A DNA stretch of 64,000 bases from Pseudomonadota bacterium (GTDB lineage Bacteria; Pseudomonadota; Gammaproteobacteria; Pseudomonadales; Pseudohongiellaceae). Made by a program: the position numbers and the translations under genes. This document shows, one piece after another, positions 29,995-30,181 of this stretch. A model generated the notes under the pieces. The model made no database searches. It had not been told where the DNA came from and saw only the letters and a program-made list of their open reading frames with translations. The stretch's first letter is position 1. Each line of letters opens with the position of its first letter. The stretch covers positions 51,082 through 115,081 of the forward strand of contig JAQBSZ010000003.1 of the NCBI GenBank assembly GCA_027623555.1, given 5' to 3'.

Positions 29995-30173
29995 ACGTTA
30001 AGCTACCTCTGCCTTGCTATACGGGCTCGGGGCCCTCATGACTATTCGAGTTGTGCCTAATAGAGTTCTGCAACGCTTACACTTAATACCGGTTTTCGAA
30101 CCTGGGCGTTAACAAGCTGCTGCAGAATGGCCTTCAGCGCTTACTGAAGGTGGCCCCCAATTTACCCGTTTAC
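29995..30173 (-). ncRNA. Candidate IS110 bridge RNA
   Basis: The 180 bases between the transposase start and the element end hold no ORF but several stem-loops on the transposase strand: CCTTCAG-(TAAGCG)-CTGAAGG, a perfect seven-pair hairpin near the outer end; CCAGGTT-(CGAA)-AACCGG with one bulge; and a GC-rich GGGCCCCGAGCCC stretch near the coding start. Bridge RNAs of IS110-group elements are produced from this upstream end and have a 5' stem followed by two loops that pair with target and donor DNA. Position, length and structure agree. The loops have not been matched to target or donor sequence here. Confidence 0.5.
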
Positions 30174-30181
30174 AATCAAGA

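What the first reader, a model, noticed from the sequence alone, without database searches (positions are those of the whole stretch)
29995..30180. Candidate bridge RNA of an intact IS110-family element
Seen: 180 non-coding bases upstream of an intact DEDD/serine transposase with strong stem-loops (a perfect CCTTCAG/CTGAAGG hairpin, a CCAGGTT/AACCGG hairpin, a GC-rich stem), and a direct AATCAAG at 29033 and 30174 that brackets the element. Known: IS110-group elements make a bridge RNA from this end whose loops pair with target and donor DNA and guide recombination. The element and guides are specific to this genome, so the programmed target can be predicted.
Basis: partly seen in the sequence, partly recalled or inferred. 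Interest (0 to 1): 0.68.

Follow-up and report, generated by a model that had tools for sequence, protein, structure and literature searches.

The report
Bridge RNA aimed at integron sites
A small jumping gene carries a guide RNA whose two target-reading strands match the recombination sites (attC) of its host's own gene-collecting integron, so it inserts itself between integron cassettes; this is a new, differently built counterpart of a targeting habit so far described only in a sister group.

Summary
Comparison with relatives puts the element at 29020-30220 with CT cores (AG on +) at 29018-29019 and 30219-30220. The AATCAAG pair lies inside it. The left end folds into a bridge-RNA-like structure conserved in 23 aligned elements: 96% of cells paired, 20 of 34 helix pairs changed on both sides, 0/500 shuffles. 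Both target guides and the left donor guide match the real flanks and element end: the right target guide is 7/7 in 22 of 22 elements and the donor guide 7/7 in 20 of 22; 0/20000 permutations reach the observed scores. The programmed target is an integron attC site. The same higBA cassette, with an uninterrupted attC, occurs in a same-genus genome. The guide-matching sequence TAACGCCCT[T/G]AATA occurs 54 times in 81 same-genus genomes (reversed control 1), in same-strand arrays next to integron integrase genes. Vibrio-type relatives (45-50% identity) target the opposite half (CTTGTTA) of attC. attC targeting is published for the IS1111 group; this lineage is IS110/IS492/IS621-type with its RNA upstream. 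New variant of a known kind; transposition itself is not shown.

The parts
29020..30220 (-). the IS110-type element (1201 bp counting one copy of the CT core), single copy in this genome assembly
   Evidence: homology limits in L002-L005; only itself found in own genome; uninterrupted homologous site in L085
29018..29019 (-). core dinucleotide CT (AG on +) at the right-end/target junction
   Evidence: RE ...CATAGTCA|CT then target; same in relatives
30219..30220 (-). core dinucleotide CT (AG on +) at the target/left-end junction
   Evidence...ATAACGCC|CT|TGTATGG; same in relatives
29044..29994 (-). transposase, 316 aa, DEDD + serine; 26% identical to IS621
   Evidence: D14, E58, D100, D103 invariant and the SG motif aligned with IS621
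29996..30168 (-). predicted bridge RNA core (outer closing helix through donor-binding segments)
   Evidence: alignment A1 of 23 elements; fold z -2.8; true 5' and 3' ends not determined
30131..30150 (-). 5' hairpin (CCTTCAG/CTGAAGG)
   Evidence: covarying helix 3
30066..30127 (-). target-binding stem-loop (stem strands 30114-30127 and 30066-30078; terminal stem 30089-30103)
   Evidence: helix 4: 11 of 13 pairs changed on both sides, 97% paired
30104..30113 (-). left target guide GTTAACGCCC, matching left flank (A)TAACGCC[C]
   Evidence: same guide and same type of flank in L005, L084
30082..30088 (-). right target guide TATTAAG, complement of [CT]TAATA
   Evidence: becomes TATTCAG in L005 where the target is [CT]GAATA
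30039..30045 (-). left donor guide ATAGTCA, identical to the right end ATAGTCA|CT
   Evidence: co-varies with the right end in 22 elements
30013..30016 (-). probable right donor guide CAAG (complement of [CT]TG of the left end)
   Evidence: GCAAG/GCAAA in all rows of A1; short, weaker evidence
30022..30168 (-). long-range closing helix (strands 30152-30168 and 30022-30035) that encloses 5' hairpin, target loop and left donor guide
   Evidence: 4 of 13 pairs changed on both sides, 96.7% paired, slid controls 11-55%; rival local hairpin shows no covariation
30210..30216 (-). left-end copy of 7-bp subterminal inverted repeat TATGGTT
   Evidence: read
29024..29030 (+). right-end copy of 7-bp subterminal inverted repeat TATGGTT
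   Evidence: read
29033..29038 (-). TTGATT, possible -35 of a promoter formed at the circle junction (17 bp from TATGGT of the left end, 30211-30216)
   Evidence: inference from sequence; not tested
28962..29019 (+). first part of the interrupted attC site (R'' box GCATAAC ... hairpin ... CTATTAAG)
   Evidence: homologous uninterrupted attC after the same higBA cassette in L085
30221..30230 (+). remaining end of the interrupted attC (R' box GTTATAC at 30224-30230)
   Evidence: same
28686..28967 (+). higA-like antitoxin gene of the cassette upstream of the insertion
   Evidence: HTH_3
30251..30865 (+). methyltransferase gene of the next cassette (in-frame GTG start; the listed ATG 30182 lies inside the IS)
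   Evidence: start codon inferred

Best explanation
The region is the left end of an IS110-group element (IS492/IS621-like size class) and encodes a bridge RNA. The RNA's target loop pairs with one end of the host genus's integron attC sites: the left guide (GT)TAACGCC reads the R' box side on one strand, and the right guide TATTAAG reads [CT]TAATA on the other. Its donor segments (ATAGTCA, CAAG) pair with the joined ends of the excised element. The transposase uses this RNA to recombine the circular element with attC at a CT core. Shown: the fold, guide/flank and guide/end co-variation, true ends, an uninterrupted homologous attC, and the attC arrays next to intI. Inferred: transcription, circle formation, RNA-guided catalysis, and that the element is still active.
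For: Fold: 34 consensus pairs in 23 elements, 20 with both-sided changes, 96% of cells paired against 23-44% when slid and 0/500 shuffles. Guides: right target guide 7/7 in 22/22 elements, left donor guide 7/7 in 20/22, left target guide sum 161 against permuted mean 119, each 0/20000 permutations and still 0/20000 without the window-type elements. L005 shows a matched change in guide (TATTCAG) and target (CTGAATA). Target: homologous higBA cassette with uninterrupted attC in L085. TAACGCCCT[N]AATA arrays (54 against 1 in the reversed control) lie next to intI in G413, G412 and G385. All window-type left ends examined in the genus, apart from a decayed one in G415 (ataaggcg), have AACGCC- or AACGGC-type flanks. 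Own genome has intI. Relatives in Vibrio, Pseudoalteromonas and other gammaproteobacteria sit in attC sites. Catalytic residues intact.
Against: No expression or transposition data. Permutations do not correct for shared ancestry. Left-guide matches are poor (4-5/10) in L003, L006b, L025 and L055. Four relatives' left flanks (L003, L007, L052, L054) show no clear attC; L003's target is only partly attC-like. The window attC folds mainly as a central hairpin, and its R''/R' pairing is not the single-strand minimum. The intI association alone is weak (9/14 against 138/369, Fisher p 0.035).
Confidence: 0.9

Rival explanations
1. Bridge RNA yes, but the target is only a short sequence that happens to lie beside a hairpin (for example a terminator of higBA); attC identity is incidental.
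For: The window itself holds no cassette array, and this copy is the only exact such motif in it; the single-strand fold of the rebuilt site is dominated by the central hairpin.
Against: The same cassette with an uninterrupted attC in L085, arrays of the target beside intI in three genomes, and attC flanks around many relatives.
Confidence: 0.06
2. The element is a member of the known IS1111-attC group.
For: Same target class; a 7-bp subterminal inverted repeat, the lower limit quoted for IS1111 (PMC11208160); donor segment in a multiloop as described for many IS1111 RNAs.
Against: Long non-coding region is upstream (226 nt) with only 24 nt downstream; right guide is 3' of left guide, as in IS110 type; 316 aa, the IS492/IS621/Piv size class.
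Confidence: 0.05
3. A conserved but dead element: the left end is a relic and the RNA is no longer used.
For: Single copy; many truncated left ends in the genus; L005 copy is interrupted by other DNA.
Against: Open 316-aa frame with all catalytic residues; both ends, all guides and cores intact.
Confidence: 0.25
4. The conserved sequence is a cis-acting DNA end or a regulatory leader of the transposase, not a guide RNA.
For: Left ends of transposons are conserved for other reasons.
Against: Loop segments co-vary with external flanks that are not part of the element; helices with compensatory changes.
Confidence: 0.03

Closest known systems
IS621 / IS110-group bridge RNA (Durrant et al. 2024, PMC11208160)
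   Same: left-end RNA upstream of a 310-330 aa DEDD transposase; 5' hairpin, target loop with left and right guides, donor guides, CT core; donor segments ATAGTCATGAGG and GCAAGG resemble IS621 CAGTATCATGG and GCAAGG
   Different: 26% protein identity; target is attC, not REP elements; a covarying long-range closing helix puts the left donor guide in a multiloop; inverted repeat 7 bp rather than 2-3 bp
IS1111-attC group (Tetu and Holmes 2008; Post and Hall 2009; ISKpn4/ISPst6 in PMC11187229)
   Same: insertion into one end of integron attC sites, RNA-directed
   Different: IS1111 carries its RNA downstream with guides in the opposite order; here it is upstream and in IS110 order
IS492 (Pseudoalteromonas)
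   Same: same size class; its CTTGTTA-type target (own recollection) is the same sequence that the Vibrio-type relatives use as the R'' half of attC
   Different: IS492 is known at a chromosomal polysaccharide gene, not described as integron-directed; not compared here by sequence
ISEc21 seekRNA (IS110 type, PMC11187229)
   Same: upstream non-coding region; right (top-strand) match lies 3' of left (bottom-strand) match
   Different: targets IS3-family transposase genes; longer transposase

Membership tests
IS110-family (IS110 group) insertion sequence | DEDD transposase with PF01548 and PF02371 | tested here: met
   (NF033542 181.8 bits, cut-off 140); residues
IS110-family (IS110 group) insertion sequence | longer non-coding region upstream of the transposase | tested here: met
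   226 nt left against 24 nt right, from ends fixed by homology
IS110-family (IS110 group) insertion sequence | no long subterminal inverted repeats | tested here: inconclusive
   7 bp TATGGTT here, 5 bp in Vibrio relatives; between the two groups
IS110-family (IS110 group) insertion sequence | transposase tree position outside IS1111 | not tested
bridge RNA | conserved structured RNA with a target loop and donor segments | tested here: met
bridge RNA | guides pair with both strands of the target and with the element ends, and co-vary with them | tested here: met
   right donor guide only 4 nt
bridge RNA | RNA is transcribed, binds the transposase and is needed for recombination | not testable with these tools
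   needs RNA-seq and recombination assays
IS1111-attC group | insertion at a fixed point in attC | tested here: met
IS1111-attC group | IS1111-type architecture (downstream RNA, guide order top then bottom) | tested here: not met
   RNA upstream, left guide 5' of right guide
integron attC site (the target) | R''/R' boxes bounding an imperfect palindrome, repeated between cassettes beside intI | tested here: met
   L085 array and G413/G412/G385 arrays with intI; excision by IntI not tested

The most novel reading that the evidence does not exclude
A whole gammaproteobacterial lineage of IS110/IS492/IS621-type elements has specialised its upstream bridge RNAs on integron attC sites, independently of IS1111-attC. 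The lineage re-aimed itself at least once from one half of attC (CTTGTTA, R'' side) to the other (TAACGCC|CT, R' side), tracking the attC variants of its host genus, and its decayed ends now form part of some attC sites.
Probability: 0.6. Interest if true: 0.7.

Novelty: new variant of a known kind. Interest (0 to 1): 0.58.

Why it matters
It gives a natural, readable test of bridge-RNA programming. The target is a repeat family the host multiplies and varies, and guide and attC variants change together, so the code can be checked without engineering. It adds a second route by which RNA-guided elements colonise integrons, with possible consequences for cassette stability, since insertion splits the R' box from the rest of attC. 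It also offers compact new orthologues (about 1.2 kb) with a different donor-loop architecture and core (CT or TT).

Tried and rejected
AATCAAG as element boundary: inside the element and not conserved. Rfam search: nothing. Reading the GGGCGTTAAC inside the left end as a second attC: it is the left target guide, conserved in L005 and L084. Searching the own genome with the rebuilt attC for more attC sites: only itself and weak hits. The pattern TAACGCCCTNAATANTRG gave 0 in the own genome because its copy is split by the IS; the IntI contig begins at the integrase, so the array there is probably unassembled. Local CTCG/CGAG donor hairpin: 90% paired but no covariation, so the long-range helix is preferred. 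intI enrichment among transposase carriers: only modest. A structure prediction was not run: transposase identity was clear from sequence.

Full report
Observation. The window holds one intact IS110-family transposase, 29044-29994 on the minus strand, 316 aa, present once in the 4.5 Mb genome. The region folds better than dinucleotide shuffles (z -3.2; z -2.8 for the core), and no Rfam family matches. The AATCAAG pair is real but misread: DNA homology with L002-L005 runs on to about 30221 and 29017. Reading in transposase orientation, the element begins CTTGTATGGTT and ends ACCATAGTCACT in relatives. The element is therefore 29020-30220 with CT cores at both junctions.

Protein. The closest solved structures are ISCro4 and IS621. 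Identity to IS621 is 26%, with D14, E58, D100 and D103 invariant and the serine of the SG motif aligned. A recollected IS621 bridge RNA sequence was checked against E. coli genomes and lies directly before an annotated IS621 transposase, so the comparison rests on fetched sequence.

RNA structure. Left ends of 23 elements from distinct loci (protein identity to the window roughly 42-84%) were aligned. RNAalifold gives 34 pairs, 20 of them with at least one two-sided change. With that structure 96% of cells pair, against 23-44% when partners are slid, and no shuffle of 500 reaches the covariation score. The target stem-loop alone has 13 of 17 pairs with two-sided changes. A long-range helix enclosing the 5' hairpin, the target loop and the left donor guide is also supported, while a local donor hairpin shows no covariation. 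This places the donor segment in a multiloop, which PMC11208160 describes for many IS1111 RNAs. The structure was derived from the same alignment, so its lead over the slid versions is partly built in.

Guides. In transposase orientation the rebuilt target is CGTATAACGCC[CT]TAATAG. The target loop reads GTTAACGCCC on its 5' side and TATTAAG on its 3' side, the IS110 arrangement of left and right guides. For 26 elements the guide and flank strings were tabulated and checked against the fetched DNA. The right guide matches 7/7 in all 22 elements that have a right flank. It follows several kinds of change: CT or TT core (AAG or AAA in the guide), TGTTA or TGTCA, TAATA, GAATA. The left donor guide matches the right end 7/7 in 20 of 22, following ATAGTCA, ATAGTCT, ATAGTCG, ATACTCG, ACAGTCA and ACAGTCG. 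Left guide matches sum to 161 against a permuted mean of 119. None of 20000 permutations reaches any of the three observed sums, with or without the window-type elements. The permutations ignore ancestry, so they overstate significance; the variety of matched changes is the stronger argument.

Target identity. The insertion separates CTATTAAG from GGCGTTATAC, between a higA cassette and a methyltransferase cassette, with the element opposite to both genes. A same-genus genome (G402, locus L085) carries a homologous higBA cassette followed by an uninterrupted attC, ACATAACGCCCTTAATAATAG...TTATTTGTTTGTTATGC. The pattern TAACGCCCTNAATANTRG occurs 54 times in 81 same-genus genomes and its reversal once. 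Copies form same-strand arrays, and in G413, G412 and G385 the arrays adjoin an integron integrase gene. The arrays contain both CTTAATA and CTGAATA forms, the two forms read by the guides of the window element and of L005. The window's own genome has an integron integrase at a contig end. Other window-type left ends, in G428, G386, G415 and G412, are also preceded by TAACGCC.

Relatives. At 45-50% identity, elements in Vibrio, Photobacterium, Salinivibrio and Pseudoalteromonas plasmid records, and several in other gammaproteobacteria, lie opposite to cassette-like genes and inside attC sites, but at the other end: right flanks read CTTGTTAGGC, CTTGTTATGC or TTTGTTATG, the R'' side, with a right guide TAACAAG or TAACAAA. 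In 17 of 24 left flanks an R'-type box (AACG[CGT]C) lies within 160 nt, against 3 for the reversed motif and 5 of 22 one kilobase away. The window-type elements thus look re-aimed from one half of attC to the other; the direction of change is inferred, no rooted tree was made.

Mechanism proposed. The transposase cuts out a circle joining ...ATAGTCA-CT-TGTATGG.... The junction places TTGATT and TATGGT 17 bp apart, a plausible promoter for the RNA and the transposase (inference from sequence). The RNA then bridges the circle and attC, and strands exchange at CT. Structure, pairing and target are shown by sequence; transcription, circles and catalysis are not.

Comparison with the known. attC targeting was described for IS1111-type elements (Tetu and Holmes 2008 and Post and Hall 2009, as cited in PMC11187229 and PMC11208160; the Tetu and Holmes paper is not held). 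Among held papers none joins 'bridge RNA' with attC except PMC11208160, where attC occurs in a reference, and no paper describing IS110-type attC targeting was found. Subscription papers and ISfinder notes were not searchable, so novelty is provisional. I file it as a new variant of a known kind: an IS110-type bridge RNA programmed for attC.

Noticed in passing
L081 near 1930 / L108 (G418), L111 (G408), L110 (G412), L109 (G473): Short left-end remnants of window-type elements sit next to R'-box flanks; in G418 and G408 both attC ends are kept around the remnant, as if decayed elements had become the middle of an attC site.
   Followed up: partly
window 27091-28690: An IS3-type element (orfA/orfB 27091-28454) lies just before a RelE/HigB-like toxin gene that appears to lack its 5' part (compare L060), while the higA gene 28686-28967 is intact: a possible orphan antitoxin.
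   Followed up: partly
window 30864-30924; L070, L071, L072: A 60-bp sequence (ACCTAACCC...GGTGTGAAATG) repeated in the genus looks like the end of another IS (an orfA-like frame follows in L070); in L071 it sits inside an attC-like site.
   Followed up: partly
window 30182-30865: The methyltransferase ORF as listed starts with an ATG inside the IS left end; the native start is probably GTG 30251, so the insertion may add 23 codons.
   Followed up: no
L032 1-1200 (G000:C56): Integron integrase gene with a possible attI (GCCAACGTTGGAT) at the very end of a contig; the cassette array itself seems missing from the assembly.
   Followed up: partly
L005 3696-4891: The sister element's transposase is interrupted by about 1.2 kb of other DNA, while both its ends and the RNA region are intact; it might still move with a transposase supplied in trans.
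   Followed up: no
L020 85-2453 (G198:C32): Two right ends of the same element type lie 2.4 kb apart in one contig, each followed by CTTGTTAT, suggesting insertions in neighbouring attC sites.
   Followed up: no
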